A stretch of 64,000 nucleotides of DNA, taken from positions 673,501 through 737,500 of the forward strand of contig JAOTON010001574.1 in assembly GCA_034440635.1 (NCBI GenBank), read 5' to 3'. The DNA is from Lepas anatifera. Its lineage: Eukaryota > Arthropoda > Thecostraca > Lepadidae. Shown in pieces: positions 3,998 to 64,000 of the stretch; position 1 is the stretch's first letter; the number at the start of each line of letters is the position of its first letter. Position numbers and translations under genes: made by a program. The notes beneath the pieces are model-generated. The model did no database searches. It was not told the origin of the DNA and saw nothing but the letters and a program-made list of their open reading frames with translations.

Positions 3998-4127
3998 TCT
4001 GTCTCTGTCTCTGTCTCTGTCTCTGTCTCTGTCTCTGTCTCTGTCTCTGTCTCTGTCTCTGTCTCTGTCTCTGTCTCTGTCTCTGTCTCTGTCTCTGTCT
4101 CTGTCTCTGTCTCTGTCTCTGTCTCTG

Positions 4128-4211
<84 letters not shown>
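3998..4211. repeat. Compound microsatellite (TCTGTC)n then (TC)n
   Basis: About 25 near-perfect hexamer units (TCTGTC) run from 3998 to about 4146, followed by about 32 CT dinucleotides to 4211. The hexamer is a TC tract with regular G substitutions, so it probably grew from the dinucleotide tract by slippage and homogenisation. All six frames are open, giving false ORFs of Ser-Leu, Ser-Val, Arg-Glu and similar repeats. Confidence 0.97.
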
Positions 4212-4213
<2 letters not shown>

Positions 4214-4917: not shown

Positions 4918-5038
4918 GGCACGCTGTCACCCTGTTGGAAGGGTACACTGGGATCAGCTAGTCCTTATCCAATATTCCCTCCCGGGATTCGAAACCAGGC
5001 CAGCAGCGTGGAAAACCACTGCGCCACCGCACCCTCTC
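4918..5038 (-). mobile_element. tRNA-derived SINE remnant
   Basis: Read on the minus strand, the right end gives a tRNA-like head. An A-box-like TGGCGCAGTGG is followed about 30 nt later by a B-box-like GGTTTCGAATCCC, which are the internal RNA polymerase III promoter elements. The body ends with CTTCCAACAGGGTGACAGCG, which aligns with the body of the better SINE copies at 38.1 and 39.0 kb. The tail is lost. This is an old, truncated member of that family. Confidence 0.65.
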
Positions 5039-7440: not shown

Positions 7441-7490
7441 CCTGCGACTACACGGCGGCAGCTCGTGAGCAGCTTCTCACGTCACGTTTC

Positions 7491-7700
7491 CAAAATGACG
7501 TCACTCAGAGTCAGCTGAGCGCGGGTACAACTGTATCACAGGACTCGGCTCTCTGGGGACAACGGCGCGCCGCGCCGCCCGGCGCTGCGTGGCGTGGGAG
7601 CGCCGCGAACGTCGCCAGCCCCGGGCGCGCCAGGATGGCCACTTACCGGCCCAGAGATGGACGAGATACTGCGTACCGACGCGTCGCAGCGCCGCCAACA
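7491..7700. promoter_or_regulatory. CpG-rich patch with CRE octamer
   Basis: A CRE palindrome TGACGTCA at 7496-7503 is followed by a CpG-dense stretch from about 7560 to 7690, including GGCGCGCCGCGCC and CCGGGCGCGCC. The flanks are AT-rich, so composition jumps sharply. This could be a promoter or first exon of an unrecognised gene, or a decayed GC-rich element. Confidence 0.25.
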
Positions 7701-9385: not shown

Positions 9386-9500
9386 CCAGTGACCTGCGCG
9401 GCCGCCGAGCGCGCGGACTGGAGGCGCCAGTGGCGCGCCGCGTCGCGGCCCGGCCCACTAGAATAGCCCAGATTGACAGCGATTGTGCGCGCAGAATGGT
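9386..9500. promoter_or_regulatory. CpG-rich patch
   Basis: Dense CpG stretch containing GCGCGGCCGCCGAGCGCGCG and GGCGCGCCGCGTCGCGGCC, in otherwise balanced sequence. Frames are open on both strands, as expected for GC-rich DNA, so this is not evidence of coding. A promoter role is speculative. Confidence 0.2.
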
Positions 9501-9830
9501 CCAGATTGGCGCGCATTGAATCGATGATTCACCAGAAATAGTCAATGTAGCTGTGAGTTTTGTTGAAACCCATCGTCGTCGGCGCCGAAATGAGGCTAGT
9601 TTCACATCGGCAAGACGGCAAATCTACTCAGAATGGCATTTCGGTATTGAGTGGCGGGGAAAATAATCGGCGTTAAAACTTATGATTCGTTTCAAAGTCA
9701 CGGGTTTAAATGCAACTCTCGTAACTTGACAGAATATGTTTGGAGATGCTGGTGCTTTGGTTGGACTTGACATATGGTAAACTATGCATGTAGTTAGCTG
9801 GGTCCTATCGTTTAACGAGCGAAGACAGAA

Positions 9831-9835
<5 letters not shown>

Positions 9836-9881
<46 letters not shown>
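9836..9881. repeat. (GA)n microsatellite
   Basis: An uninterrupted run of 23 GA dinucleotides. Confidence 0.97.
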
Positions 9882-9884
<3 letters not shown>

Positions 9885-10837
9885 GCGTTGGCATAGATAT
9901 CGCACGCACCACGAAGCAGCATAAGTATGATAAAGGAAGAGGGGGAGGAGAGAAAGCCCGGTACCGATCTGGCTCACAACAATACGCACCGACATCAATA
10001 GGCTTTCACTTGGTGGCCCTATCCCACATCCGAATTCCTCCATCTGAGAGTGATTAAAACATGCGCCAATACACGTTCAAGGCATCTGACATCGCATATC
10101 CCACGCTGGCGACTAGTACTCTACCCCTCTCCCTCTCGGAAACTCCACCGCAGCCCTGGTGTATTTTTTGCGGCGACCTTTTTGTCGGCTGCGCGAGGGT
10201 AACTGTCGAGTAAGGAGCAGCTGGTCATGTCTTCTGTACCACAGAAAACAGCTGCTCACACACAGAAACTGCACCGGTGTGAGCATCAGACGACCTGTCA
10301 CGCTGCAGCTGCCACACGGGGGCAGCACACACGCTCCGGGGGCCGCAGCACGCGGCTCATCGCTGAAACCGGCCGCAGCTTCTCTGCCTGAATTAATACA
10401 TCCTCAAATGTTTATATCACTCGGAGCGTGTATCTACCGCACCGTTGTGGCCATGTCAAAGAGCAGGGCTGACAACAGAAATAATTAAAGATTGAGTGTC
10501 CGCCCAGAGCGTGAGTGACATGATTAAGGAAACACTTAACGGTGGCGATAAATTCAGCACCAAGAATTTCGGGCGGGACCATTCGAATATATCATAAGTT
10601 AAAGACCTCTGCCCTCACGTTATGATGCATGCAAAGAAGGTATAACGTTACTCTTTAATGACCCTAGTTCTTTGTTCTATGTCATTTGATATCCACTTTG
10701 CGTACATCAATCCTACCTTTCCGGGAAATTTACATAGCAACGTCGCGGTGGGAAAATTGGGCCCATTTACCTTCTCTATAGAAAAGGACGGATGGAAGGA
10801 AAATCTGCAGCTGGAGTAGGGAAAATAGTTACACTCC
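9882..10837. other. Spacer, nothing recognised
   Basis: No motif, repeat or coding signal was recognised. Confidence 0.4.
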
Positions 10838-10997
10838 CAGCGGTGGCGGGTCCAGGAATTTATTCCGGGGTGATGGCTAGGGGCTAGAGTCTCCCTGCCA
10901 TTGACTCGGAACTGCTTCCGACTGTGTACTTAGGCACTCTGACACTTCGGAGTGGGGGGGGGCTTGAATCTCCTAGCCTCCCCTCTATCCGCCACTG
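10838..10997 (-). mobile_element. hAT-like MITE, family B copy
   Basis: Short element of about 160 bp. The left end is GGTGGCGGGTCCAGG and the right end TATCCGCCACTG, which are inverted relative to each other. The interior shares the family's phrases: GCCATTGACTCGG, an ACTCTGACACTTCGG block and a GGGGGGCTTGAATC block. No convincing target duplication was seen, so the outer ends may have eroded. No coding capacity. Confidence 0.75.
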
Positions 10998-11451
10998 CAT
11001 CCTGGGTAAATGAGGCCACATATACCTACATTCCCTTCAGCGCGGCGAGGGTTATGATTTGGAGTTACGAAAGCGGAAGTGCATGTGCCATGTGCACGGG
11101 CATACTGAGTCAGTGTGTGAAAGCACAACAGCCCAGTCAGAAACTAGCTGCACATCGCCGCCATCTTGTTTTTGAGCTCATTTAGCTGGGGCTCTACCAT
11201 GTTTGAGGAACGCACTCCTTTGGCAGCATTGGAAAGGCATATGTGTCTTAATTCCACCATAACATTATAGTTCGCGACACTAAGCTGAAACCTACCTTAA
11301 ATTAACCTTAATACGAATCTTAGACAGGCCTGGAGGTCTAGAACATACCAGAAAAGTATGTTTGCAATGAGAGCAGCAGCCTCTTTAACCACAGATATGC
11401 TGCTGCAGGCTCCAGGATGCATCAGCTTCTTCGACTGCATACAGTGAAACG

Positions 11452-11598
11452 CAGTGGCGCATCCATGACTTCATTCGGGGGGGTGGGGGGGGCTCGAGCT
11501 TCTCCTGTCATTGCCTCGAAACAACATCCGGCTATGCGTTAACTATAGGCACTCTGACATTTCGGGGGAGCCTCTCGCCCCCCTTGTATCCGCCGCTG
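11452..11598 (-). mobile_element. hAT-like MITE, family B copy with target duplication
   Basis: The element starts CAGTGGCGCATCC and ends GTATCCGCCGCTG. It is flanked by GTGAAACG (11444-11451) and GCGAAACG (11599-11606), an 8-bp duplication with one mismatch. 8-bp duplications and CAG-type ends are diagnostic of hAT transposons. The interior carries GGCTCGAGC, AACTATAGGCACTCTGACATTTCGGG and a G-run. It is internally deleted and non-coding. Confidence 0.9.
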
Positions 11599-11606
11599 GC
11601 GAAACG

Positions 11607-12546
11607 TATTCCTGACAGCGCTTCCGTCGAAATCGTGATGCAAATCTGAAACCGCATCGGGAACCACGCGTACCTTCAGACCGTGCACTGGCAACCATTA
11701 ATCACACCATTGCTGACCACGGTCTCTCAACACTGGAATCATTCCAGGTGACCGCACAATTTTTTATTTTTAGTACCATCGCGCAAAGGGCCCCTCGAAG
11801 TGCGCCCAACAACACCAGACACGTGCCGGTCCTTGAATTCCACATTGTAAATAAGCATGTCCCTCATGAATTTTTACTCGGTAAGTGCATAACTGGTTCC
11901 AGGTAAGGTATATCTGAGATGGTAACTGTGCATACGTTTGCCGACCAGGCTTTCTACAGCTACGTTCAAGTCCTGCACCAGCTTCGGCAGGCAGATCCGG
12001 TAGTAGCCAGATAGAAAGCAGGCTCTTTTCTGTGACCTGAATCAGACGGCCGACATTTCCGCTCATTGAATTTGATCTGATCGCACTCTGAAGTCATTGT
12101 CCGCTGTAACGAGACAGTCAAACAAGGGCATTCAGTCAAAATCACTCTGCCCAGCAATTATAACGGCTTCAGTTTCGGCTCCGGTCTGTTCCCGAACTTA
12201 CACAGATATCGGGGCAGACTCAGAGCATTGGTGACTGAGATGACGCGGAAGATCTATTGACATTATTAGAATAGGCGACAAAAAGCCAGCAGGAATACAC
12301 CCTATGAGAGCAGTCACTGTGGATCTTCGACTTTCATTTATTATCAAAACTCAGCTGCAATCAGCTTGCTGAGTGGCGTTCCACTTCCTGGCTCAGATTG
12401 CCCTCAGTCCTATTTTGGTTAGTTTTTTACGAACGCCTGTGGACCGCTCTGGAGTATTACAAGCCGTCAGAGTACAGGTCACCTGCTGATAACTACATGC
12501 ATTGACAAATAACATCACTGTTGCTGATATACATAATGGTCTCTGG
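11607..12546. other. Spacer, nothing recognised
   Basis: Frames at 11770-12066 and 11966-12157 (minus) overlap each other and show no domain. No repeat was seen. Confidence 0.4.
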
Positions 12547-34546: not shown

Positions 34547-34980
34547 CAGTGGCGGCTACAATGGGGGGGCTCGGGGGTCAAGCCACCCCAAATATCCAGA
34601 GTGTGTACAGTTAATGCATGGCTGAAGGCTGTTCCGAGACAATGGCGGGGGAGGCTCTAACCCCTTCATAGGCGGATCCAGGGGGCAAAGGGGGCACGTG
34701 CCCCCCCCGATCGACCCTCGGCGCCCTCTGAAATGGTCACGGCGCCCCCTGAAAGTTCGATGGCGCCCCCCTGAAATGTCGCTTCCCACCCCCCCAGAAT
34801 GCGAAAATCGGCGCCCACCAATAGGATTTGGCGCCAACCTAATAGGTTTTACCGGTCAAAAGCGGCGCCCCCTGGTCCGGATGGCGCCCCCCGGGAAGGT
34901 GCCCCCACCCCCGATCGGCAATCCTGGATCCACGTATGAGCCCCTTAGCCCCCCAAAATGTTGCCCTGGATCCGCCACTG
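34547..34980 (+). mobile_element. hAT-like MITE, family B, split by a nested element
   Basis: Starts CAGTGGCGGCTACAATGG, directly against the right target duplication of the previous element, and ends TGGATCCGCCACTG. Standard B interior blocks (AGAGTGTGTACAGTTAATGC, GGCTGAAGGCTGTTCCGAGA, GGGGGAGGCTC) precede position 34666 and resume at 34939. A complete family C element lies between. The bases after the right end (CCGCAACGCC) resemble the GGCAACAC on the left with a one-base offset. Confidence 0.88.
34667..34938 (+). mobile_element. hAT-like MITE, family C copy 1, nested in family B
   Basis: The 272-bp element starts CATAGGCGGATCCAGG and ends CCTGGATCCACGTATG. The flanks AACCCCTT (34659-34666) and AGCCCCTT (34939-34946) are an 8-bp duplication of family B sequence with one mismatch. 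The interior repeats GGCGCCCCCTGAAA-type motifs about every 20-25 bp, a subterminal repeat arrangement like that bound by hAT transposases. Non-coding. Confidence 0.92.
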
Positions 34981-43972: not shown

Positions 43973-44319
43973 AGCATAATTGAAAACTTTGTGATAATGG
44001 TGAGGAAAATGGCATTCATACTGAAACAACAATCTGACACTGAAAAAATTCAAGAGCAGGCTTCGGAGTTTTTTTCAATATCAGCTTCTTGGGCGAGGGA
44101 TGGTGTGGAAGGGTCAAAGAGGACGTACCAGACTGTAGCGCATTTTAGCCACTGACTTTCGGTCGAATACAGTCGACCACTGAGGACTCGATATTACCGG
44201 GAATCAGCGCAGTCATTTTGATGTTTGACAACTCACATAAGTAGCAAATTGTAAATCACAATTCTGGCTTCATGAGGGAAACAAATGCAGCCATTCATAT
44301 TTATTTATGTGACCCAGAC
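43973..44319. other. Spacer; left flank of giant element
   Basis: Nothing recognised except ACCCAGAC at 44312-44319, the left target duplication of the giant element. Confidence 0.5.
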
Positions 44320-44363
44320 CAGGGGCGGATCCAGGATTTTTCGCTAGGGGGCCGCAGCGCTGG

Positions 44364-44420
44364 GGGGCGCCACTTTCATGGTCAGGGGGCGCCATTTTTA
44401 GGCCGACTGGGGGCGCCAAA
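44364..44420. repeat. Subterminal GGCGCC motif repeats, left end of giant element
   Basis: GGGGGCGCC-type motifs with their GGCGCC cores at 44366-44371, 44388-44393 and 44412-44417 are spaced about 22-24 bp apart, just inside the left terminus. The same motif forms the core of the large minisatellite toward the right end and of the family C MITEs. hAT transposases generally bind repeated subterminal motifs, so these are candidate binding sites (inference). Confidence 0.6.
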
Positions 44421-44499
44421 TTTTATGTTCTTTATCCATTTACAATATTTTTGCGAGCTGAATCAGTTAACCTGCGTCCCGGTGGGCCTCCGAGTCACC

Positions 44500-45480
44500 T
44501 TCACCCTGGTGGGGGTGTTTGAACACCCCCTCTCGAACTCGGCTCCTAAGCAGGATAGCGAAAAAACGCGAACCCTGGTGGATAGCTCATACAAATTCAT
44601 GAAGACACTATATCAGTCACTTTTTGGCTCAGGTCAACATTGAGGTCATGACAGGTCAAAGAAGTTGGCATTTTGAGCAAAGCTGTTGGACTCTAGCGTC
44701 TGACAGCGTTGAGTTAGAATAATTTTGTATGCACTGTTTGCTCTCTCTCGTCACGGCGAATCGAATGATGTATAATATGAGCATATTAGGTCAAAACACA
44801 AATCACCTGACCCCAGGTCAGGTTAAGGTCACTTTTAGCTTAGCATAGTCCATATGACTATGAATCGACTGGCAATAGCAATCCAAACGCAATGGTATGA
44901 ACATAAAAGCTGTATCATCGTTTCATGCAAAGTTATTGACCTAAGTCTGAAAACTGCTTAAGTAGCTTCGGATGACCTCTCAAAGGTCACAGGCCAAAAA
45001 TTGCAGCATGAACCTTAAAAGGGGCCTAGGATACTTCAATTTAGAGAATATGAAGGTAAATACCTTAATAATATACCTTGATAATATTATCACCTTTATC
45101 TACACAAATACAGTCCATTTTCTGTATTCCTCTGTATTTCCAATGGAGAGGTCATGGCCCGTATTTGACCTTATGTCATCGATATGAAAAATCCCGGAAA
45201 TTTTTGGAGAACTCGGTGGGGCCATTGTGTGTTATAAGTTTCAATCCGATACATTCACCCATTTCCTACTTATGCCACCTTCAACATGTTTTGAGGTAAA
45301 GTTACTTGACCTGCACTGATGACCTGACCTGAGATGACCCAAGCTTAAAATTTTGGGAAAACTTGCGGAATCAATCAAGAAGAAGGTGTGCCAAGTACGG
45401 GCTTCGCGTCGCCGTTTTTTCCTTACCGCCAGAAAAATCGGAGGGGGTGTTCAAACAGCCCCCACTGGGGCGGGGCTCAG
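44500..45480. mobile_element. AGGTCA-rich TIR element (family F), nested copy
   Basis: The left end around GGTGGGGGTGTTTGAACACC (about 44508-44528) is inverted at the right end around GGTGTTCAAACAGCCCCCAC (about 45450-45470). The match is about 30 bp and weaker further in. The inside holds more than a dozen AGGTCA or TGACCT hexamers between 44631 and 45330. Its right third aligns with the inverted sequence at 63708-64000, which supports a real repeat family. Target duplication not found, superfamily unknown, no coding frame. Confidence 0.65.
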
Positions 45481-46560
45481 AGGTAATTAGCCTCATATAT
45501 TCTTTTGAAAAAAATTGGGAAACATCATAGCTTTGAATGTATCTAAAATACATCTCAGCAGTGCTAAAAAGTGAAAGTATCTCTTTGGCGTTTATTTTAG
45601 TGATGCACTGGGACCCACGGTTAGTAAAGACACTTTGAGACCCGGGGAGACTGCATGGGGACTATTTTCTCCCCAATCGGTGATCAAAATTATCTTCAGA
45701 AGCCTTAAACAGTTTGTAGAAGACCACCGAATATTAAGAATAGGCCCGTCTGTGTGCATTAGCACACAGGGCCTTAAGTAGCCATAAGGGTCTAATAAAC
45801 CACTAGGTCAGAGCAATGATCCCAGTTCCCTTCAATCTGAGCTAGCCAGCCACAAAGGATCTATGACCTAAGTTTATGGACTTTGGCTTACTTCAAGACC
45901 CCAGTTATTGTAAGCCTTTCTAAGGCTATATTCTAATATTATGCCCTCCGAAGACTTGACTAAGACAAGCAACTTGCCGTATTTCAATGTGGTACTTTGA
46001 CCTTCCGTGCGTAGCCACGCTCGACGTAGGACAAGCGTACCCGGGGTGCAAAGGGACCAGTACCGACCTAGCCTACGCAGAATATCAGAATGCCGATCTA
46101 AGGTGCGCACTACGATCACAATGCTGATTTGGCCCCACCTGCGCAGTGCGGGCGCATGCTGGAAATCAGAATAAAATATCGACGTGCGTGCGCCCATTCT
46201 TATGTATTCTTGGCATCATGATACGGCCCCTGGCGACCCTAAGGCAAGCAAAGGCCCAGTTTAGGGATACTCCACATCAGAGATCAACTCGGAAAAATGT
46301 GTTTGTGTCTCCCTTCAGCGGCATCTACCTGAATTTTTGCAGGAACTATAACTAGCTATAACCATATTTTGGCCGTTGTCCTGTCTTTGCTGTGCTCTGG
46401 CAGCGACATAGGACCCTCGACTGACCAAAGTGAACTCGAAGTCGTTCACAGTGTACACTTGTACACTTTCTGGCTTTCTCCAGGGGTTCGCTAACTGGCA
46501 AATTAGATCCTAATGGATTTAAGGTTCCCACCAGTCCCACTCACAGCAGTCAAAGACCGT
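45481..46560. other. Interior of giant element, unassigned
   Basis: Unique-looking sequence with no recognised frame or repeat. Confidence 0.4.
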
Positions 46561-46599
46561 CATGGATGGTTCCCCACTTGGATGCAGGGGGCCCAGCGA

Positions 46600-47210
46600 C
46601 TTCCCGATTATACCTCAGGTCACCTCATGACCTTCCACAAGAATATGGCAGGCCTTACTGGTCACGGAAAGACCTGTTGGGCTCGGAGTACCCTTTTTAT
46701 AGACTGTTCGTTCAGTTCCAAATATATATTTACGATACAGAGTGCTTTTATGGTCACCGAGGATATCGCCCTGTCCGACAAAAAAAGCATGCTGGCAAGA
46801 CATGGCCCGGACTGCGACCGAAAGATCTGCTAGTTACAGAGATTCCTGTTGACCTAAGATTGCCCTATTGACGAGGAGACTCCTGGTCCCAAAGGACCTG
46901 CTGACCGTAGAGTGCCCTACTTGTCACAGCATACCTCGCTGGCCACAGAGGGCATTCTCGGTGGCAGACAGAAGGCTCTTCTGACTGCATTGGGCCTTGC
47001 CGACCACGGAATGATGTGCTGGTCATGCTTGTCACAGAGGGCCCTGTTGAAACTGTTGAAAACAGGTGACCCACCTGATTAAAGAGTGTTCTTCTGCCCC
47101 TAGGGGACCCTGACGGTCACATATAGGGCGTCGCTTGCTGCAGAGGGTCACGCTTGTAACACCAAGTCATGCTGGTCCCCGAGATTTACGGTTGGTCATA
47201 GATTGGCGTA
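46600..47210 (+). repeat. Highly degenerate minisatellite, roughly 20-bp phrases
   Basis: Phrases like CTGGTCACAGAGGGCCCT recur with many changes: TGGTCACCGAGGATATCGCCC, CTGGCCACAGAGGGCATTC, CTTGTCACAGAGGGCCCTG, CTGCAGAGGGTCACGC. The period is about 20 bp or multiples of it. Frames such as 46513-46833 and 46566-46871 are products of the repeat rather than genes. Confidence 0.55.
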
Positions 47211-48690
47211 GCCCGGCTGTCCTTCGCGCGATCTTTTCCCTTCGGGTGCCTCTCATGCGACTGCGCTAGCCGCCCCACCCCTCTGCTACGTTTCTGTTCC
47301 TCCCTACTATAGTTTCATCACCCAATCAACTCTCCTTCCCCGATCACCAAGGCATTTTCCAGCTCTATCAAACCGGCCGCAAACTCAACCTATCCAAGGT
47401 GATGATGTTAGAGATCGCACCTGACCAACCCCCGTCTGCGACCTGGGCTAATGCCCCACCGGCGCAGGAGAGCCGCATGACAATGTGCTGAAAGCAAACC
47501 ATATTTCCTTCTCAATGTATCTCTTCATAAGCCTGTAAGTCAGTTGTATCATTAGTTTCTTTGAAATAACTAATAAAGAGCAGGCAGTCACTCCAGATTC
47601 GAACCGGGCCTCACTGATCAAGAGACAGGGCCTCTAATCACTATACCCCCGTGCCACACCATTCAACCTCCCACTAGCCGAACACCTGTGACCCGTCAGG
47701 AGGTCACTGGCCGGTACCAATCAGCCGACAATGTCGGGGCGCTGGCGGCGGATGCTGTGTTCGTCCAGAAAAGGCACGATATAAAGGTGCTTCTAGAAGA
47801 CGAACCAAACATTATTTTGGGCTGAAAATACTTGCATCGTCGGCCTAGGATCCTAAGCTAGCTTCATGCCAAATTTAATCCACTTCCATTGATTTTAAGG
47901 ACTTGAAACCATGGTGAGACACAAAGGTGGTCCGAGAAAATTAGCACCTTGAAATACCCTTTCAGACGAATTACTCAAAAGCCGTCGGAGATAAGCGCGT
48001 AGGGTGAATGAATGAAATGACTGCAATTAATTTTCCAATTCAAGCATGTCAATTCGGAGCTTGTGAGTGACATGTGCTTGGAACCTAGAAGCTAAAAATA
48101 AAAGGTTTTCTACTAAAATTATGTTTATACGTATAAAATAATAAATTTCAAAATCACGATATCCATCTCCAAATATCAGGCGTGAGCAATGTTCTTTCAT
48201 TATCTGAAATGACAAGTCAAATCGGCGCATTAGACCACGAGATATTAAGATTTGAATTAAATGTGCAAAAATGCAGTCCTCCGGCAGAATGGCAAAAACT
48301 AGGTCAGAATTTTACGTTTTCCACTGGAAACTATGCCTAAGCACAATCAAATTCACCTAGCTGCCTCCAGGTGGCTGTCTTTAAACTAACTGAAGCGTGC
48401 CTCCTGACATTTCGAGCTTTTAAGTCGGCCGTCAAATTTCAATAGCTTTTTTACTTGTATCAGAAATACTGCGTTTTGGCGTAATAATTATTGTCAGACC
48501 AGTTCGAAATTTTTATCTTAGGTGGCCTCTGTTGCTAATTCAAAAGGAGGAAAATTTCAAGTTGGTCGATTAGGAAATCAAAATGAGGAAAATGAAAAAT
48601 TGAAAATATTTGTTCCAAAATTTCTTAAAAACTATATTGAATTTAGATTCGGGGCCTTAGTTTGGGCGTCTAGCGTAAACGGGCTATCAC
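47211..48690. other. Interior of giant element, largely unassigned
   Basis: AT-richer toward the right. Apart from the tRNA-like segment at 47583-47657 nothing is recognised. Confidence 0.4.
47583..47657 (-). mobile_element. tRNA-like SINE head or tRNA pseudogene
   Basis: Read on the minus strand it has an A-box-like GGTATAGTGATTAGAGG and a B box GGTTCGAATCTGG at tRNA spacing. The would-be acceptor ends (GTGGCAC... and ...GACTGCC) do not pair, so it is not a working tRNA gene. It could be the head of a SINE of another family. Confidence 0.5.
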
Positions 48691-48750
48691 CTTACACAAT
48701 TACAGAGTCCTGACATCAAAGTTGATGTCAGGGCTCTGTAATTGTGTAAG
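48691..48750. repeat. Near-perfect 60-nt palindrome
   Basis: CTTACACAATTACAGAGTCC... on the left pairs with ...CTCTGTAATTGTGTAAG on the right. The 29-bp arms have one mismatch and only AG at the centre. It would extrude as a cruciform or form a tight RNA hairpin. The loop is too short for a typical microRNA precursor. Confidence 0.95.
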
Positions 48751-48856
48751 AGCCTCTGGAGAAATCGCAATCCGCTTCGCTCCATGAATTTTGTCATGCG
48801 GCTCTGACACTGACCGAGCTTACCTATCACTGATCAACAACCGAGAAGGCTGGGTA

Positions 48857-48900
48857 CATGGACGATCCAGGATTTCGATAAGGGGAAGCGACGTCTCCGG
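48857..48900 (+). mobile_element. Possible degraded hAT terminus
   Basis: CATGGACGATCCAGGATTTCG then ATAAGGGG closely resembles the giant element's left end, CAGGGGCGGATCCAGG then ATTTTTCGCTAGGGG. No matching right end or flanking octamer was found. It may be the remnant of a sister element inserted inside. Confidence 0.4.
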
Positions 48901-49680
48901 GGGCGGTCAGACTACGATTTGGGGTCAACCTTTGGTATCATGGATCTTTGTGATGCTAATTTTGCATATTTTTGATGCCATTTGAAAAAGCCGATTAAAA
49001 AACACGTTGCCAAGAAAAGGAAGAATTTCACAAAGTGCCTCTAGTTAAGCAAGCAACAATGAAACAGGGCACCTTTTACCTGTATTACGTTTTGAAGCAG
49101 ACTTTGCGCAGAGACGGCCTTTGGAGATTTTGCGAACCAGTCGTTGCATTTTACCCTGTGTGCGCAGAGCGGATAGTGATAAATCCATAATATTATACAT
49201 AAGGCGAAACTTTTTTGCTGTTTACACTCTTGTGGGAGAGGACGCAACCGAAATTCTGCAGGTGCCTCCTGCCGATCTCTCAATGTTTTTCTTACACAGA
49301 TGACGTGGGAATTTCGCATTGCTGTCTGGACACAGCCTTTCATTAGTGGCACTGCCAAAAAAACCCTCGGCAAAATAAGTAAATGATCGAAGTCAACAGC
49401 GTATAGGGTAATCAGTAGATCCAGAATGTTTTTTAAACACATTTAAGGGATATTGGTATATGTGCTCAAAATTTGTTTCACAAGAAACATTATTTTTACC
49501 AGTCCCCTATAGGTATTCCATCGTAGCATGTTCTTGTCGCAAAAGACAACACAACTACATATCAGACGGGCACACGACCACACATCGGATGGGCATGATG
49601 GAGCAAAGTGACACCGATCGGTACCCAAAACAAACATTAAAAGAACTCGGGGCAATTGTTACCACTCAAAGCTGAGAGCT
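48901..49680. other. Interior of giant element, unassigned
   Basis: AT-rich; frame 49041-49442 (minus) has no domain. Nothing supported. Confidence 0.4.
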
Positions 49681-51650
49681 GTCCATGTGCCATGGGAGTG
49701 CCATGTTTCAGTGGGATGCCCTAAGGCTGAAAAAGATCGGTTAATCGTGAAATTGGGGCACCCGAACACGAAGTAGAGGACATCCGAAGTTGAAGGCGGT
49801 ACACGTAAAAGTGGGGCGCCCCAAGGCTAAGAAAGAACAGACAATTGTGGAAAATGGGGGCGCAGTCATGCACTATAGGGCAGTCAAAAGTGGATGAGAG
49901 CGATCAATTTTACGGTGGGCCACTTTAGAGCTAAAAGGGACGGTCAATCATGATATAGGGGTTCTGAACCACAAAGTGGAGGGCGGCCAGAGATGAATGA
50001 GGGCAGTCCACGGTGAAGTGGGGTGCTCTAAGGCTGCACAAGACCGGCCAGCAGTGGAGAAGGTTCGCACAATCATACAGAAGAGAGCGGCTAAAAATGG
50101 ATGAGGGCAGTCCATGTTACAGTGGGGCACCCTAGGGCTGAAAAGCGGTTCAGTTGTAAAAACGGGGAGCCCAGTCACAAAGTTAAGGGCGCATGTAGGT
50201 AAATGACGGTGGTCCACGTCGCAGAGGTCCGCCAAGCGCTGAAAAAGGGTGGCCAAACGTGAAATATGGGGTTCTCTACCATAAAATAGAGAGCATCTGG
50301 AGGTGAGTGAGGGGTCCACATTGAAGTGAGGCGCCCTAGATCTGCAGAGGAGCGACCAATAGTGGAGAACAGGAGAACAATCATGAAGAAGAGGGCGGCC
50401 AAAGGTAGGAACGGGCGGTCCATGCTGCAGCTGGGTGCTCTGGAGCTAAAAAGGGCGGCCAATCGTGAAATATGGGCGCCTAACCATAAAGAAGAGGGCG
50501 TCAAAAAATCGATGAGGGAGGTTCACGTTGAAGTGTGACGCCTATTAGGGACCCGGGGGCATGATATATGAGGGGGTGCTTAGGTTTATAAATGAGTCCA
50601 GCGGTGATGCAGCATGGGAGTGCCAAAAGTTCAGTGTGGTACAGTGGTACACCCTGTGGGACGCCGGTGATCTATAGCCGGGGAAAGTGTGGTGAGTTAG
50701 TCAGTTAGTTATTTGGGCTTTCGGGGTGAGGGATGGTAATGGTGATAGTGCATCGGGGGGACGCTGATACTTCACCGAGGCGATACCGAGACTGGAGTTA
50801 TGGATACCGATGCTGCAGGCAAGGGGCGCCTGCGGTACATAGGCGTGGAACCGTCAGTTGAGCGTCTGTGGGAGCAAATAATCCATCATAGGGACACTGG
50901 TAGGGTAACAACAGGGTAGAAGGGGGTACACGAATAGGGCACTGGTTGGGCAACAGGGAGGAGAAGACGGTGCATGGAAAGAGCGCTGACAGCGCAATTT
51001 GGTCATCAAGGAGAAACCGAAGCTGAAGTTTGGAGCTTCCGGTGATACAGCTTGGGGGTACTTGCATTCAGTGAAATTTGTGGGAGCTGTCAAGGGTAGG
51101 CGCTGGTAAGACAACGGGCCACGTTTGGGATGCAAGAAATGCAAAGTAAAGAGAAGCTGCATGGGGTTTCTGGCAGGGATGTGTTTGGGAGGGGGTGCGT
51201 TCATGGAGCTAACGATAGGCACCCATCATGCACCATGGAGGCGGTGGAGGCACAGGGCATGCTGTCAAAAAATGGGGCGCCCATAGTGGCGCGTGGCGGG
51301 GGTAGAGGGGGAGTGCTGGGCGCCGGTAGAGCAAAAGTAAGATACCAATGATGCATCAACTAATCAGCAGAAATGTGTGAGCGCCTATAGTGAAGTGTGG
51401 GGGCACCAATGGAGTGACAGAAAAGCACCAATGTGTACCATGGGGGCCGCCAGACCGAGCAGTTTGTCGAAATTTGGGGGCACTCCCGATGAGCCCACGG
51501 CGGGAGATGAAGGCGCCGGTGGAGCATAGCACAGGTACCAATGATTCATTATGGGGGCGCCAGTGATACAGACCGATGTGTCAAAAGATGGTGGAAAGAG
51601 GCGGGGGAGGGCGCCCATAAAGCTAAAAGCAGACAACAATAATGCATCAT
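49680..51650 (+). repeat. Diverged part of complex minisatellite
   Basis: Recurring phrases such as GGGCRGTCCA..GTTGCAGTGGGG, GCCCTAGGGCTGAAAAG, GGCGGCCAAT..GTGAAAT and GGGGGCRCC appear every roughly 50-70 bp but with strong divergence. The pattern grades rightward into the well-conserved GGGGCGCC array after about 51.65 kb. All long frames through it (mainly minus strand, proline- and histidine-rich) are repeat artefacts. Confidence 0.75.
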
Positions 51651-53328
51651 AAGAGTGGGGCTCGAGTGGTATAGGAGGTGCTGTTGAAAGGTGAAGACCC
51701 CCTCAATGGGGCATGGGGGCGCAGTTTGAGATTGAAAAGAAACGCACCAATTATGCACCATGGAGGCGCCAGTGGTATAGAGGGGATTTTCCTAAGGTGG
51801 GGGCGCCCGTAGTGAAAAGTGGGGGCGCCGTTGGAGTGCACAGAAGACACCAATGATGCCCAATGGGGATGCCGGTGGTAGATGCGGCGTTTCAACACAT
51901 GGGGCGCCCACAGTGACGCGTGGGGGCGCCGTTGGAGCAAAAATGAGACATCAATGCTGCACCATGGAGGCGCCAGTGGTATAGAGTGGATTTGCCTAAG
52001 GTGGGGGCGCCCGTAGTGAAAAGTGGGGGCGCCGGTGGAGTGCAAAGAAGACACCAATGATGCCCAATGGGGATGCCGGTGGTAGATGCGGCGTTTCAAC
52101 ACATGGGGCGCCCACAGTGACGCGTGGGGGCGCCGTTGGAGCAAAAACGAGGCATCAATGCTGCACCATGGAGGCGCCAGTGGTATAGGGTGGATTTCCC
52201 TAAGGTGGGGGCGCCCGTAGTGAAAAGTGGGGCGCCGGTAGTACATCGTGGAATGCCACGAAGTGGAAGAGTTCACGATGAGGCTTGGGGGCGCCGGTGG
52301 AGTGAAGCGAAGGCTCCATGGTGCCCCATGGGGGCGCCAGTGGTATAGAGCGGATTTTTAGAAGGTGGGGGCGCCCATAGTAGGGAGTGGGGATCCAGTA
52401 GTACATAGCGGGGAGAGAGGGGCTCTACTTGTGTAAAACGGGTTGGTAAAAGATGAAGAACCCCTCGTTGATGCATGGGGGCGCCATTTGAGCAAAAAGG
52501 CACCAATGATGTACCACGGGGGCGCCAATGGTAAAGAGCGGCTCTAAAAAGCAGAGGCGCCCACGGTGAAGCGTGGGGGCGCGCCGGTGGAGTGCACAGA
52601 AGACACCAATGATGCCCAATGGGGATGCCGGTGGTACATGCGGGGTTTCAGCACATGGGGCGCCCACAGTGACGCCTGGGGGACGCCGTTGAAGTACAAA
52701 CGAGACATAAATGCTGCACCATGGAGGCGCCAGTGGTATAGAGCGGATTTTCCGAAGGTTGGGGGCGCCCGTAGTGAGGATTGGGGCGCCAATAGTTTAT
52801 AACGGGATGCCAAGAAGTGGGAGAGCCCACGATGAGGCTTGGGGGGCGCCAGTGGAGTGAAGCGAAGGCACCAATGATGCACCAGGGGAGGGGGAGCGAC
52901 GGTGGTATAGAGCATTTTGTTAGAGGGTGGGGGCGTCCGTAGTGGGGAGTGGGAATCCAGTAGTACATAGCGGGGAGAGAGAGTGGGGGCTCACTGGTAT
53001 AAAACGGGCTGGTTAAAGGTGAAACCCCCTCAGTGAGGCACGGGGGCGCCATTTGAGCAAAAAGGCACCAATAATGTACCACGGGAGCGCCAATGGTGAA
53101 GATCGGCTCTAAAAAGCAGAGGCGCTCACGGTAAAGCGTGGGGCACCGGTGAAGTACACAGAAGACACTAATGATGCCCAATGGGGGTGCCAGTGGTACA
53201 TGAGGGTACCAAAAGGTGGGGCGCCCACAGTGACGTGTGGGGACGCCGTTGGAGCTAAAAATGAGACATCAATGCTGCACCATGGAGGCGCCACTCATTG
53301 GACCACTTATTGCACCATGGAGGCGCCA
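51650..53328 (+). repeat. Conserved GGGGCGCC minisatellite, left block
   Basis: Monomers of about 45-65 bp each carry GGGGCGCC. They occur as recognisable variants: one with GGAGCAAAAACGAGACATCA, one with CACCATGGAGGCGCCAGTGG, one with AGAGCGGATTTTCCGAAGG, one with AGTGAAGCGAAGGCACCAATG. These are ordered into higher-order units; the ACGAGACATCAATG landmark recurs at spacings of about 204, 553 and 561 bp. The block ends where the LINE begins. Confidence 0.93.
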
Positions 53329-54333
53329 CCACCGGACCAGGACCTACTTATTGGACATCTCAACATTCAATCGCTTCGAGGACATCTTCCAGAACTTCGA
53401 AACGACATCAGCCAAACCTATGGATTCGACTTGCTGTATCTAAATGAAACCTGGCTGTCACCGGAAATTCCTGATCGCCTTCTTCAAATTGAAGGGTACA
53501 AAATTCTACGAAGAGATCGACCCACCAACTTGAAACTTCCGAAGGGGAAAGGCGGTGTCGCCGTATATGCCAACGACTCCCTACAGTGCGAACTGCTACC
53601 GACTCCGCGCACAGCAGTCCACGGCAGCAATCTCGAAGCTATTTGGACAACCGTCAAAGTAAGCAACAGTGTGAAGTACATAGTTTGTTCTGTTTACCGA
53701 GTGCCAAACAATACTCTTAATCAGCTGACAAAGGATTTAGACGATTTTGAGTCACAACTTCAGATCATGTTTGGGAAATATGTTGATTTCAAGTTTGTCC
53801 TCACCGGTGATTTTAACCACTGCTTGCGTAAGGAACAGCGTGAGTGTAGGCCTCAGTTGCGACAGTTATTTGAAAATTACGGATTCAGCATTGTTAATAC
53901 AACTCGTAATACTTACCGACCAGCTGGTACCATTCTTGATGTTATTGCCACAAACTGTCCTGAACGTGTCCGTCGGAGCGGCGTGACCAGGTGTCATTTC
54001 GGTGGACCGCATGACTTTACGCGCATTTTACTGCGCGGCCCCGACGCACAGACGCGACAAGTAGCTTGCAGGCAAAAGAAACGATGTTTAGCGCGCGTAG
54101 ATGTTGATGAATTTCAGGTGCGGATTTCCTCGATCGACTGGTCGCCTATGCTGATGTGTGCATCGCCTGATATTAAGTGGCAAATCTTTAAAAGAGCCTT
54201 TTTGCTTCAGTTGGATCGTGTTGCCCCCTCCGCTCTGTCCCGGCTCGTAAGCCGGTCGTGTTGCCACTCACACACCATACACGGCAGATCATTCACCAGA
54301 GGCAACTCGCACTGGTCCGGGGATCTCGTCTAG
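53317..54333 (+). CDS. LINE endonuclease domain (frameshifted at its end)
   Basis: Encodes the exonuclease-endonuclease-phosphatase (APE-type) domain that nicks target DNA for reverse transcription. Visible motifs counted from the ATG at 53317 are HLNIQSL (Asn 16), LNETWL (Glu 44), CSVYRVPN, LTGDFN (Asp 165) and LDVIATN. The closing SDH motif appears as GPHDF near residue 231, so the usual catalytic Asp before His looks replaced by Pro, which would impair cleavage. Meaningful coding ends at a C5 run (54224-54228), where the frame jumps to that of the reverse transcriptase; the rest to 54333 is out of frame. The ATG and first residues come from minisatellite sequence, so the true N-terminus is missing. 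Confidence 0.88.
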   Translation: MEAPPPDQDLLIGHLNIQSLRGHLPELRNDISQTYGFDLLYLNETWLSPEIPDRLLQIEGYKILRRDRPTNLKLPKGKGGVAVYANDSLQCELLPTPRTAVHGSNLEAIWTTVKVSNSVKYIVCSVYRVPNNTLNQLTKDLDDFESQLQIMFGKYVDFKFVLTGDFNHCLRKEQRECRPQLRQLFENYGFSIVNTTRNTYRPAGTILDVIATNCPERVRRSGVTRCHFGGPHDFTRILLRGPDAQTRQVACRQKKRCLARVDVDEFQVRISSIDWSPMLMCASPDIKWQIFKRAFLLQLDRVAPSALSRLVSRSCCHSHTIHGRSFTRGNSHWSGDLV

Positions 54334-56376
54334 AGTATAAACAATTAAACCGTTTAAGTAAATCTGCGATTCGGCGTGACTCGCGCGAATTTTTCCAACG
54401 CGAAATTTTAAGAAAAGGTCGTGCTCGATTCTGGCAAATCTTGAAACCCGTTCTGGGCAAAAAACAAACGGCCTCTATACTTCTCGACGTGACACCAGAT
54501 GTACTCAACGATTATTACGTTTCGGTAGGACCAACCACTGCTGCTTCCGTACCCGCCCCGACGATCCCCGTCCCAGTGCGACTGCCTCGCGTCACCACAT
54601 CCAGTTTCACCGTCCAGCCCATCGACATACAAACCCTACACGCCACTATACTCAGCATGAAGCCGTCCAACAACGCCGGAGGTGATGGGCTCAGCATGGC
54701 TATGTTCACTAAATTCTTTTCTTCAATTGGATTTCTCCTTCTAGATATCATTAATTCTAGTCTCCTCACTGGCCAAGTCCCAGCAGAGTGGAAACACGCA
54801 CTGATAACCCCAATTCCAAAAAGCAAATCACCAGCGAGCCCGGCCGATACGCGACCCATTACAATTTTGCCCCCACCCATGAAACTTGTCGAAAAAGTAG
54901 TCCAAATTCAACTTGTAAACTACCTCGAAAACACTCATTTGCTGTCCGATTCTCAGCACGGTTACCGACGAAATTATTCTACAGAGTCTGCTTTAAACGT
55001 GATCACTGACCGCGTCTATCGTGCCATGGACCAAGGTGAAATCAGTATTCTTGTTCTATTGGATCTGTCGAAAATGTTTGATGTGGTTCCCCACCACATC
55101 CTACTGCAGAAAATGACACTATACGGCATAGACACAGTCTGGTTTCAAAATTATTTGCAAGGCCATACTCAACAAGTTCAGATAAAATCCCCTCGTGACG
55201 GCACAATCATCAGATCTGGCTCAAAAAATAACAATATTGGAATTTTTCAAGGTGGAAGTCTCTCTTGTATACTCTGCATTCTCTTCACTAACGACCTCTC
55301 TCTTCACGTGGAAGACGACGTGACGATCACTCAGTTCGCCGACGACACTTCCGTTCTCATAACAGGCAAAAAACAAGACTTACAACATCTTATTCAACGC
55401 ATGGAAGCCATACTAAATTCCCTTCATCAATGGTTTTGTGCAAATGGCATGAAAGTAAACACGTCTAAAACACAGATGATGGTCCTGGGCACTAAAGCAA
55501 TGCTGCGAAATTTTCCTCCCGTTAGCCTCAAATTCGGAAATTCAACCATCATCGACTCGAAATTCGTGAAAAGTCTCGGCGTTCTGCTTGATCGCCACCT
55601 TGAGTTCGATCAGCACGTAAATTCAGTCACTAACAAAACCACGGGCCTTCTTATCGCCCTCACCCACATCCGCCATGTCGTGCCAGCTCAGCTCATGCCC
55701 CAAATTATTCACTCTCTAGTGCTTTCCATCGTTCGATACTGCCTCTGTGTTTACGGCTCTTGCAGCAACAGTCAGGTGCACAAAATTCAAAAAATAATCA
55801 ATTTCTGTGCCAGAGTCGTCAGCGGGCGCCGAAAGCGAGACCACATTTCCGACGTTGTTGAACGACTCAAGTGGCTGGACGCCAAACACCTCATCCAGTA
55901 TCACACTGCATGTTCCGTACACAAAATCATATACACTCGCACACCACCACAAATAGTACACACAATAGGTCCTCCACGCAGCACAATACACAGCCACGCA
56001 ACGCGCCGGTCAGCGGAGCTGTCCCTGCCGCGAATCCGCACGGAGGCAGGCCGACGTCGGCTTGCGTACCGGGGGGCAGCTCTGCTGAACGAGCTGGACA
56101 TCGGAGGGGACATGCCGTTCAAACCCACTTTGAGGGCCCTGCTAATAGAGAGGCAGTGGGGAGGCTTTCGTCAGCGCTAGTTTTATGTATGTTGTGCGCG
56201 GTTCGTGTGCCTGTGTGTGATCTGATCTTATTTTTATGGTATGCTTTTATCCTTTACTTTTATCGTTAATTTTACCTACCATGTCTTACCATATGACGTG
56301 GAAACGTGAAAAACCACCTACTTGTTTTACCAATGTGTGGACGTTTCCAAATACATTCTGATTCTGATTCTGATTC
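53329..56376 (+). mobile_element. Non-LTR retrotransposon (LINE), 5'-truncated
   Basis: About 3.05 kb with an apurinic-type endonuclease frame, a reverse transcriptase frame, a roughly 175-bp 3' UTR and a short tail (ATTCTG)3ATTC at 56355-56376. It lacks ORF1 and a 5' UTR: the endonuclease motif starts within about 35 bp of the left junction, so it is truncated. It interrupts the minisatellite. The right flank resumes mid-monomer at CAGTGGTATAGAGCGG, and only a CCA-sized overlap, not a longer target duplication, is visible. Domain order and tail suggest the Jockey/CR1/L2 group; the exact clade is not determined. Confidence 0.93.
54228..56180 (+). CDS. LINE reverse transcriptase
   Basis: Continues the polyprotein in a shifted frame, without its own ATG. 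Counting from the GTG at 54258 (640 codons to the stop), it shows a linker (HHTRQIIHQRQLALVRGSRL), the RT finger region (PADTRPITILPPPMKLVEKV), motif A LDLSKMFDVVPHHILL (Asp 269, 55062), QGGSLSCILCILFTNDL in place of the usual PQGSILGP, and the catalytic FADDTSVL (from residue 360, 55335). A thumb and C-terminal region without RNase H follow. The catalytic Asp residues are intact and there are no internal stops. The unusual IFQGGSLSC stretch may be private or degenerate. It would copy its RNA at a nicked target, but this copy is probably dead because of the upstream frameshift and truncation. Confidence 0.93.
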   Translation, partial: LRSVPARKPVVLPLTHHTRQIIHQRQLALVRGSRLEYKQLNRLSKSAIRRDSREFFQREILRKGRARFWQILKPVLGKKQTASILLDVTPDVLNDYYVSVGPTTAASVPAPTIPVPVRLPRVTTSSFTVQPIDIQTLHATILSMKPSNNAGGDGLSMAMFTKFFSSIGFLLLDIINSSLLTGQVPAEWKHALITPIPKSKSPASPADTRPITILPPPMKLVEKVVQIQLVNYLENTHLLSDSQHGYRRNYSTESALNVITDRVYRAMDQGEISILVLLDLSKMFDVVPHHILLQKMTLYGIDTVWFQNYLQGHTQQVQIKSPRDGTIIRSGSKNNNIGIFQGGSLSCILCILFTNDLSLHVEDDVTITQFADDTSVLITGKKQDLQHLIQRMEAILNSLHQWFCANGMKVNTSKTQMMVLGTKAMLRNFPPVSLKFGNSTIIDSKFVKSLGVLLDRHLEFDQHVNSVTNKTTGLLIALTHIRHVVPAQLMPQIIHSLVLSIVRYCLCVYGSCSNSQVHKIQKIINFCARVVSGRRKRDHISDVVERLKWLDAKHLIQYHTACSVHKIIYTRTPPQIVHTIGPPRSTIHSHATRRSAELSLPRIRTEAGRRRLAYRGAALLNELDIGGDMPFKPTLRALLIERQWGGFRQR

Positions 56377-57790
56377 CAGTGGTATAGAGCGGATTTTCCG
56401 AAGGTGGGGGCGTCCGTAGTGAGGATTGGGGCGCCAATAGTTTATAGAGGGATGCCAAGAAGTGGGAGAGCCCACGATGAGGCTTGGGGGCGCCAGTGGA
56501 GTGAAACGAAGACATCAATGATGCCCAATTGGGGCGCCGGTGGTACATGCGGGGTTCCAAAAGATGGAGCGCCCACAGTGACCCGTGGGGGTGCCGTTGG
56601 AGCAAAAACGAGACATCAATGCTGCACCATGGAGGCGCCAGTGATATCGAGTGGATTTTTAGAAGATGGGGGCGCCCGTAGTGAAGAGTGGGGCACCGGT
56701 AGTATATAGCGGGATGTCAAGAGGTGGAAAAGGCTTGGGGGCGCCAGTGGAGTGAAACGAAGGCACCAATGATGCCCAATGGGGGCACCGGTGGTACATG
56801 CAGGGTTCCAAAAGATGGGGCGCCCAAAGTGACGCGTGGGGGGCGCCGTTGGAGCAAAAACGAGACATCAATGCTGCACCATGGAGGCACCAGTGGTATA
56901 GAGCGGATTGTTAGGAGGTGGGGGCGCCCGTAGTGGGGAGTGGGGGGAGAGAGTGGGGGCTCACTGGTATAAAACAGGCTGGTAAAAGGTGAAGACCTCC
57001 TCAGTGAGACATGGGGGCGCAATTTAAGTAAAAAGGCACCAAAGATGTACCACGGGAGCGCCGATGGTAAATATCGGCTCTAAAAAGCAGAGGCGCCCAC
57101 GGTGAAGCGTGGGGCGCCGGCGAGTACATAGAAGACACAAATGATGCCCAATGGGGGCGCCGGTGGTACATGCGGGTTCCAAAAATGGGGCGCCCACAGT
57201 GACGCGTGGGGGCGCCGTTGGAGCAAAAACGAGACATCAACGCTGCGCCATGGAGGCGCCAGTGGTATAGAGCGGATTTTCCGAAGGTGGGGGCGCCCGT
57301 AGTGAGGATTGTGGCGCCAATAGTTTATAGCGGGATTCCAAGAAGTGGGAGAGCCCATGATGAGGCTTGGGGGCGCCGGTGAAGTGAAACGAAGGCACCA
57401 ATGATGCCCAATGGGGGCGCCGGTGGTACATGCGGGGTTCCAAAGATGGGGCGCCCACAGTGACGCGTGGGGGCGCCGCTGAAGCAAAAACGAGACATCT
57501 ATGCTGCACCATGGAGGCGCCAGTGATATAGAGCGGGTTTTTAGAAGATGGGGGCGCTTGGAGTGGAGAGTGGGGCGCCGGTAGTATATACCGGGATGTC
57601 AAGAGGTGAAAGAGTCTTGGGGGCGTCGGTGGAGTGAAACAAGGGCACCAATGATGCACCATGGGGGCGCCAGTGATACAGGGCGGGTTGTCAAAATGTG
57701 GTATTTGCATGCAGAGGAATTACCACGGGGCGCCAGTATTTCTGTTAGGCATACAAATGTGGAGCGAATGGAGGCGGCCCCCGAGGATGC
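56377..57790 (+). repeat. Conserved GGGGCGCC minisatellite, right block
   Basis: Continues the array after the LINE with the same monomer types and order. The ACGAGACATC landmark recurs at about 56611, 56863, 57232 and 57493 (spacings about 252, 369 and 261 bp). It ends about 70 bp inside the right terminus of the giant element, in a GGGGGGGCCGCGGCCCCCGC palindromic stretch. Confidence 0.93.
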
Positions 57791-57871
57791 CTTAGTGCCG
57801 AGGGGGCGCCTTACCAGCGAGGGGGGGCCGCGGCCCCCGCGGCCCCCCCTGGATCCGCCCCTGACCCAGAC

Positions 57872-59385: not shown

Positions 59386-59675
59386 CATAGGCGGATCAAG
59401 ACGGAAACAAAGGGAGCACTTTCCTTCCGCCCCGATTGACCCTCGACGTCCCTTAAATGGCTACGGCGCCCCTGAAAGCTCGATGACGAACCCTTGAAAT
59501 GTTGCTTTCCACTCCTCCCCACATGTTGAGAGTGCGCCGCCCTCAAGATTTGGCGCCCACCTGATAAAATATTCCGTCCAAAAGTCAGTCAAAAGTTTTA
59601 TAACGCCCCTTGGTCTGGATGGAACCCCCGACCATAGCCCCCCTCCCCCACCAACAACCCTGGATCCGCCCATGC
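59386..59675 (+). mobile_element. hAT-like MITE, family C copy 2
   Basis: Starts CATAGGCGGATC and ends TGGATCCGCCCATGC. TCCTGAG flanks both sides (59379-59385 and 59676-59682), seven matching bases with an eighth mismatched. The interior aligns with the 34.7-kb copy (GATTGACCCTCG, GGCGCCCCTGAAAGCTCGATG, ATTTGGCGCCCACC, GGTCTGGATGG). Several GGCGCC motifs have decayed, so this copy is older. Confidence 0.92.
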
Positions 59676-63707: not shown

Positions 63708-64000
63708 AACCTTCGCCGGGGTGGGAGTCTTTTTAGATCCCCCTCGGGTTTTTCCAAAGTGACCGAAAAACGGCGGCGCGCAGCGCCGCCAAACTCAGTC
63801 TAGCTGTTCCTCCATCATGTTTACATCTTTCCTGAAAATTTTAGCACAAGGTCACTTCAGGGCAGGTCACCAGGCCAGGTGAAGTGACCTCCCCTAAAAA
63901 AATGCTTAGGACTGCATAACTATAAGAAGGGTTAATCGATCAAATTGAAACTCATACCACACATTGGGCCCACCAGGAGCTACAACATTTCTTCCGGGAT
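63708..64000 (-). mobile_element. AGGTCA-rich element (family F), partial inverted copy
   Basis: Reverse-complemented, this aligns with 45184-45475: GGTGGGCCCAATGTGTGGTA against GGTGGGGCCATTGTGTGTTA, then GAGTTTCAAT, a run of AGGTCA/TGACCT sites (63849, 63864 and 63885), CTAAAATTTT, a CGCCG...TTTTT stretch and a terminal GAGGGGGATC block. It runs off the right edge of the window. A perfect GGCGGCGCGCAGCGCCGCC hairpin lies at about 63772-63790. Confidence 0.75.

What the first reader, a model, noticed from the sequence alone, without database searches (positions are those of the whole stretch)
44312..57871. A 13.5-kb hAT-like transposon with perfect TIR and TSD but no visible transposase
Both ends carry the exact 16-bp inverted terminus CAGGGGCGGATCCAGG, and the exact octamer ACCCAGAC lies outside each. 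Non-autonomous hAT relatives in this window are 145-435 bp; this one is roughly 30 times or more larger and carries satellites and nested elements. If real, it is a giant non-autonomous DNA transposon that moved, or was expanded after moving, with a satellite cargo.
Basis: partly seen in the sequence, partly recalled or inferred. Interest (0 to 1): 0.88.

Follow-up and report, generated by a model that had tools for sequence, protein, structure and literature searches.

The report
Giant transposase-free hAT-like transposon family
This 13.5-kb stretch is one copy of a family of very large jumping DNA elements (8-16 kb in the copies read) in which no enzyme gene could be recognised, which sit at many places in this genome with exact target-site duplications, and which end in a long array of short repeats that likely serves as docking sites for an enzyme they would borrow from other elements.

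Summary
The element is 44320-57863, with exact 16-bp inverted ends and the exact 8-bp duplication ACCCAGAC. In the window's own 1.04-Gb assembly the 16-mer occurs 2104 times, control 0. I read 15 other copies. Of the 13 with both ends in hand (window included), 12 have a perfect 8-bp duplication, each different; 156 cross-pairings reach at most 6/8, and the flanks compared share no similarity. One other copy has clear empty paralogous sites with a single target copy, another a weaker case. The window's own target is single-copy, so no empty site could be seen. About 3.08 kb of the 13.5 kb is a later LINE, absent in 9 of 9 other copies checked there, so the unit is about 10.46 kb. The satellite belongs to the mobile unit: 15 of 15 other copies carry it. 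It is dense in GGCGCC (66 in 5.1 kb, 2.7 expected). No coding signal was found. Nine copies lie 0-0.54% from their majority sequence. Inferred, not shown: mobilisation in trans by a hAT transposase, with the array as binding sites. The partner transposase was not identified.

The parts
44320..57863 (+). whole element, 13,544 bp including a later LINE; about 10,462 bp without it
   Evidence: boundaries; LINE-free length
44312..44319 (+). left copy of the 8-bp target-site duplication ACCCAGAC
57864..57871 (+). right copy of the target-site duplication ACCCAGAC
44320..44335 (+). left terminal inverted repeat CAGGGGCGGATCCAGG
   Evidence: 2104 exact copies in the assembly
57848..57863 (-). right terminal inverted repeat CAGGGGCGGATCCAGG
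44360..44420 (+). left subterminal stretch with three GGGGGCGCC motifs about 22-24 bp apart
   Evidence: sequence; spacing in c1182a; 3 motifs left of the array in 14 of 15 copies listed, 2 in c1842
44336..49690 (+). left body, about 5.4 kb, no recognised coding sequence; 98.8-99.4% identical in the six other A copies that align over it in one piece
44504..45469. internal inverted repeat pair (29-nt arms, 86% complementary), probably an old nested element, within the stretch shared by all copies compared
48691..48750 (.). near-perfect hairpin, 29-nt arms, 2-nt loop
49691..53293 (+). right GGCGCC array, inner part (start chosen by eye; spacings of 22, 37 and 44 bp, periods near 102 and 204 bp)
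53294..56375 (+). LINE retrotransposon (endonuclease and reverse-transcriptase domains, ATTCTG tail) inserted later into the array
   Evidence: absent in 9 of 9 other copies checked
56376..57847 (+). right GGCGCC array, outer part, reaching the right terminus

Best explanation
It is one copy of a multi-copy family of very large DNA transposons (8.2-15.6 kb in the copies read to both ends) with 16-bp inverted ends and 8-bp target duplications in which no protein gene was recognised, so they are likely cut and pasted by a hAT transposase made elsewhere in the genome, with the long right-hand GGCGCC array predicted to act as a landing strip of transposase-binding sites. Shown: the unit with its array sits at unrelated places with its own exact 8-bp duplication in 12 of 13 copies, and one site is clearly seen empty in paralogues. 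Shown: copies are near-identical; a form with part of the left body inverted and part deleted is found at two unrelated places; every copy read to both ends keeps an array of at least 3.9 kb with at least 46 GGCGCC. Inferred: the mover is a hAT enzyme acting in trans; the array binds it and would offset the usual penalty of length; the array changes size by unequal exchange between transpositions.
For: Exact duplications in 12 of 13 copies against at most 6/8 in 156 cross-pairings, and no mutual similarity among the joined flanks of 12 copies. 18 of 40 right ends paired with a left end at 8.8-15.6 kb. Empty paralogous sites. Nine copies 0-0.54% from their majority sequence. The rearranged derivative c1686/c1327 is 99.8% identical over 8.83 kb with different duplications. 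No ORF longer than chance, no relevant Pfam or Rfam match. GGCGCC 66 in a 5,093-bp array against 2.7 expected, spacing recurring at 22 bp. The array is kept at 3.9-6.7 kb in the copies read to both ends, c1842 apart. The 272-bp relative at 34667-34938 has the same motif at 19-48 bp spacing. At least 150 hAT dimerisation domains in the genome, 12 of the 150 listed rows in open frames of 800 aa or more without a stop. hAT DNA-binding domains bind subterminal repeats and often prefer CGG or CGC (PMC8097297, passages).
Against: The partner transposase was not found: of six candidate genes read for 0.8 kb beyond the domain, one has a 13/16 match to the end and the other five reach at most 11/16, and no partner end lay in the 1.6 kb taken upstream of that one. 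The hAT target preference nTnnnnAn (recalled) is not evident: T at position 2 in 3 of 11 and A at position 7 in 5 of 11 octamers. The motif lies in the same direction at both ends rather than inverted, and the array is on one side only, unlike symmetrical subterminal repeats. Copy c528 has unequal octamers. ORFs of 60 aa or more number 11 against 7.9 expected, with none long. Binding of the array was not tested.
Confidence: 0.72

Rival explanations
1. The array is passive: a satellite that expanded by unequal exchange in an ancestral copy and has been carried along since without helping transposition.
For: Array size differs between copies through steps of the 204-bp unit and larger blocks, as neutral unequal exchange would give. 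Motifs point the same way at both ends.
Against: Both subfamilies, about 10% apart, and the deleted derivative all keep at least 3.9 kb of array while the left body is partly lost. The same motif at similar spacing is present in a 272-bp relative and at the left end.
Confidence: 0.38
2. The elements are moved by a transposase of another superfamily that also makes 8-bp duplications, such as a P-type enzyme.
For: Only the ends and the duplication length point to hAT; no partner was found; the recalled hAT target preference is not evident.
Against: CAGNG-type ends with 8-bp duplications are typical of hAT (recalled). The genome is rich in hAT domains in open frames, and one such gene is followed by a 13/16 end-like sequence. 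P-type transposases were not searched.
Confidence: 0.12
3. The element is autonomous and encodes an unrecognised or heavily spliced transposase in the left body.
For: The left 5.4 kb is 98.8-99.4% identical in six other copies; spliced genes are hard to see by ORF length.
Against: No Pfam transposase match in 6 of 6 frames at E up to 1; longest ORF at the random median; about 2 kb of the left body is deleted and 1.3 kb inverted in a derivative found at two unrelated places. Near-identity follows from youth alone.
Confidence: 0.05
4. Two unrelated short hAT ends enclose the stretch by chance or nesting.
For: Six short hAT-like pairs with duplications of at least 7/8 lie in the window.
Against: 12 of 13 copies at unrelated places with perfect, different duplications; 18 of 40 right ends paired at 8.8-15.6 kb; empty sites.
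Confidence: 0.01

Closest known systems
Non-autonomous hAT elements and hAT MITEs
   Same: short CAG-type inverted ends, 8-bp duplications, no transposase; the 147-384 bp relatives in this window are of that size class
   Different: 8.2-15.6 kb here, with a kb-long one-sided motif array
Tetris of Drosophila virilis (Foldback type; PMC4079207, passages)
   Same: non-coding, 8-9 bp duplications in the three complete copies, internal tandem repeats of about 220 bp that vary in number, autonomous partner not found, link to satellites
   Different: Tetris has the repeats in long inverted repeats on both sides and three complete copies; here the inverted repeat is 16 bp, the array is on one side, and 12 copies with perfect duplications were read
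Galileo (P superfamily; PMC3688188, passages)
   Same: repeated transposase-binding sites near the ends, proposed to offset the cost of length
   Different: long inverted ends on both sides and a known transposase of the P superfamily; binding shown there, only inferred here
ToxhAT, a 14-kb hAT transposon of fungi (search listing only, PMC12506042)
   Same: very large hAT-type unit
   Different: carries a gene cargo; no claim here of a gene cargo or of a fungus
Helentron-carried satellite-like arrays of oyster (search listing only, PMC7492417)
   Same: dispersed satellite-like arrays carried by a non-autonomous mobile element
   Different: rolling-circle elements, by established knowledge without 8-bp duplications and such inverted ends

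Membership tests
hAT superfamily (as a non-autonomous member) | 8-bp target-site duplication | tested here: met
   12 of 13 copies, 156 cross-pairings at most 6/8
hAT superfamily (as a non-autonomous member) | short inverted ends beginning CAG (recalled) | tested here: met
   CAGGGGCGGATCCAGG at both ends
hAT superfamily (as a non-autonomous member) | an autonomous hAT element with the same ends in the genome | tested here: inconclusive
   150 hAT-domain rows; 0.8 kb beyond six of them read, one 13/16 end-like match, no paired end found
hAT superfamily (as a non-autonomous member) | target preference nTnnnnAn (recalled) | tested here: inconclusive
   T at position 2 in 3 of 11, A at position 7 in 5 of 11
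MITE | length of a few hundred bp | tested here: not met
   8,167-15,614 bp in copies read to both ends
Foldback / Tetris-like | long inverted repeats with tandem repeats at both ends | tested here: not met
   only 16 bp inverted; no long inverted arms between the two ends; array on the right only
Independent satellite DNA | arrays existing apart from the element | not tested
   no genome search with the array alone was made

The most novel reading that the evidence does not exclude
A transposase parasite that won by growing: a one-sided landing strip of about 50-90 GGCGCC sites, often two helical turns apart, captures a hAT transposase so well that a coding-free 8-16 kb DNA multiplies as miniature elements do, overturning the rule that non-autonomous elements succeed by being short, while the same array spreads a satellite through the genome.
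Probability: 0.35. Interest if true: 0.75.

Novelty: new variant of a known kind. Interest (0 to 1): 0.62.

Why it matters
Cut-and-paste elements without a gene are expected to be short, because transposition usually falls with length (stated in PMC3688188, passages). Here two subfamilies of 8-10.5 kb units without a recognised gene have near-identical copies with clean duplications. If the array is what compensates, this is a natural system for testing how the number of transposase-binding sites trades against length, and a direct route from transposon end to dispersed satellite. Such units would easily be mis-annotated as satellites plus unrelated fragments.

Tried and rejected
Chance pairing of unrelated ends: rejected. 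Segmental duplication: not supported; the joined flanks of 12 copies show no mutual similarity. The LINE as part of the unit: rejected, absent in 9 of 9 other copies checked at that site. A hidden gene: no ORF longer than chance and no Pfam transposase. The Pfam matches at E up to 1 were DUF1899 (0.038) in the left body, and YAcAr (0.62 and 1) and GHL6 (0.55) in the array. Six of six frames of the left body were scanned, but only 4 of 6 frames of 49690-53290, and the outer array not at all. Rfam: no match at gathering score. A hAT-end-like sequence that I saw by eye near 48859 was considered as the true left partner and dropped, because its flank differs from ACCCAGAC. Viral contigs: an array 21-mer gave 0 matches; the 16-mer gave 11 stretches that I did not study. 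The autonomous partner was sought and not found. ORFs of 190 aa or more in the 322 kb of own-genome sequence then held were listed, with array-like ones filtered out, and only the window's LINE frames had been put to Pfam. The organism was not identified. Not done: array-only genome search; P-type transposase search; copy count of the left body (asked, unanswered).
Full report
OBSERVATION. The two 16-bp ends and the flanking octamer are as described. The mobile interval is 44320-57863. Pairing end-like sequences of the window by their flanking octamers gives seven pairs that agree in at least 7 of 8 bases: six of 147-384 bp, and this 13,544-bp unit with 8 of 8.

GENOME EVIDENCE. The window lies in an unnamed 1.04-Gb assembly of 2,126 contigs. 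A 200-base query from the left end gave 1,029 first-look candidates, of which 40 were scored, all hits; 16 of the 40 are 97-100% identical and 24 are 93-95%. 27 of the 39 other hits start exactly at the predicted terminus and 12 within 5 bases of it. The right end gave 494 candidates, 40 scored; 29 of the 39 other full hits end exactly at the predicted terminus and 10 at 1 base before to 5 after. 18 of 40 right hits lie on the same strand as one of the 40 left hits at 8.8-15.6 kb, window included; 22 do not. Both lists are capped, so unpaired rows are no evidence of solo ends: c798, unpaired in the lists, proved complete when read. The exact 16-mer occurs 1,095 + 1,009 times, control 0; only 100 of the 2,104 places are listed. 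Among neighbours in those 100, 7 convergent pairs span 7-16 kb, 2 more span 22-24 kb and none is below 1 kb. Three neighbour pairs are divergent (3.7, 3.9 and 8.3 kb) and 12 point the same way.

INDIVIDUAL COPIES. I read 15 other copies. Three (c1045, c443, c1005) were cut by what I took or by a contig edge. Of the other 12 plus the window, 12 of 13 have identical octamers on both sides. The exception is c528 (TAAGCAGG against GGTCTGAG), which also has a duplicated right module and may be a recombinant. Left octamers compared with right octamers of other copies (156 pairs) match in at most 6 of 8. The joined flanks of 12 copies (window included, c528 left out) show no mutual similarity.

EMPTY SITES. 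The joined flanks of c1833 align across the junction to two neighbouring repeat units in L029 (89% over 313 bp, 78% over 189 bp), each with one GGGAGTTG where c1833 has GGGCGTTG on both sides. For c1686 the evidence is weaker: two local repeat units beside the element itself (about 79-80% identity; the L028 and L043 rows are the same place) run through with one octamer-like stretch that needs a 1-base gap. The window's own joined flanks match only themselves in the assembly, as two pieces (query 1-151 and 141-299), so no empty site of this insertion is at hand.

ANATOMY. Without the LINE the window copy is 10,462 bp, like c1182a (10,463) and c1448 (10,526). The LINE (3,082 bp; endonuclease and reverse-transcriptase domains, the endonuclease ones just under Pfam's cut-offs; ATTCTG tail) interrupts an array that is continuous in 9 of 9 other copies checked. 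The left 5.4 kb is 98.8-99.4% identical in the six other copies that align over it in one piece; nine copies lie 0-0.54% from their majority, c528 at 0 of 5,410. A derivative (c1686, c1327) has 1719-2997 inverted and lacks 2998-5026; the two are 99.8% identical over 8.83 kb at unrelated places with different duplications, so the rearranged unit itself moved. Subfamily B (c1507, c513, c443) is about 90% identical to A and 98.7-99.4% to each other over the long aligned stretches; c513 and c1507 are 8.2 and 8.4 kb. c798 (9,633 bp) is about 96% identical to A.

ARRAY. From about 49691 (start chosen by eye) to the right end, LINE excluded, GGCGCC occurs 66 times in 5,093 bp of c1182a; a first-order random model gives 2.7 (maximum 9 in 200 runs). 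The rest of the window has 29 in 50.4 kb. Spacings of 22, 37 and 44 bp and periods near 102 and 204 bp recur. In the copies read to both ends the array is 3,866-6,735 bp with 46-88 motifs, apart from c1842, whose 10,234 bp include a 4.75-kb insertion. Left of the array there are 3 motifs in 14 of the 15 copies listed and 2 in c1842. The short relative at 34667-34938 has 7 motifs at 19-48 bp spacing.

CODING. The longest ATG ORF in the left 5.7 kb is 108 aa; random sequences give a median of 106 and a 95th percentile of 160. ORFs of 60 aa or more number 11 against a mean of 7.9. Pfam and Rfam gave nothing relevant.

MECHANISM. Shown: transposition as a unit with 8-bp duplications; near-identity, from which recent activity is inferred. 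Inferred: mobilisation in trans by a hAT transposase. The genome search listed 150 hAT dimerisation domains (1,241 candidates, 150 scored), 12 of them in open frames of 800-1,089 aa without a stop. I could read 0.8 kb beyond six of them. One (C1676, frame of 845 aa) is followed at about 380 bp by a 13/16 match to the end, and the others reach at most 11/16; no partner end lay in the 1.6 kb taken upstream. Inferred: the array binds the transposase. hAT DNA-binding domains bind subterminal repeats and often prefer CGG or CGC (PMC8097297, passages). Galileo's repeated sites bind its transposase domain and are proposed to offset the cost of length (PMC3688188, passages). The Tetris authors propose that early repeat expansion raises transposition and later seeds satellites (PMC4079207, passages).

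NOVELTY. Eight literature searches listed no title that I recognise as such a family. Searches required all terms and returned nothing. One search, with the end sequence, demanded two terms and returned nothing, so a paper with that string alone would be missed. Repeat libraries were not available, and multi-kb non-autonomous hAT elements may be listed there. I therefore call it a new variant of a known kind.

Noticed in passing
window 34667-34938 and 59386-59674: Two short hAT-like pairs with 7/8 duplications and GGCGCC motifs (7 and 2), miniature relatives in plan.
   Followed up: partly
window 45191-45354 and 63835-64000: Part of the left body matches an inverted stretch at the window edge at 71%, and 808-1100 of the element matches the insertion in c1842 at 80%: probably an older repeat inside the unit.
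   Followed up: no
c1842, element positions about 7224-11972 (L033, L034): A 4.75-kb insertion in the array with its own inverted ends beginning GGGGC, another mobile element nested in the unit.
   Followed up: no
G000 contig C54, 28551-29133: Five exact copies of the 16-bp end in the same orientation within 0.6 kb, three of them 26 bp apart: a tandem cluster of transposon ends.
   Followed up: no
c528 (L022, L023): The copy identical to the nine-copy majority in the left body has unequal octamers and a duplicated right module; perhaps a recombinant.
   Followed up: partly
window 53270-53340: At the LINE's 5' junction an array stretch (CACCATGGAGGCGCCAC) is repeated, as if copied from the target during insertion.
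   Followed up: no
window 3997-4210: A nearly perfect CTCTGT hexamer array, 35.7 copies.
   Followed up: no
G000, whole assembly: 150 listed hAT dimerisation domains, 12 in open frames of 800 aa or more: the genome seems to hold several possibly intact hAT lineages.
   Followed up: partly
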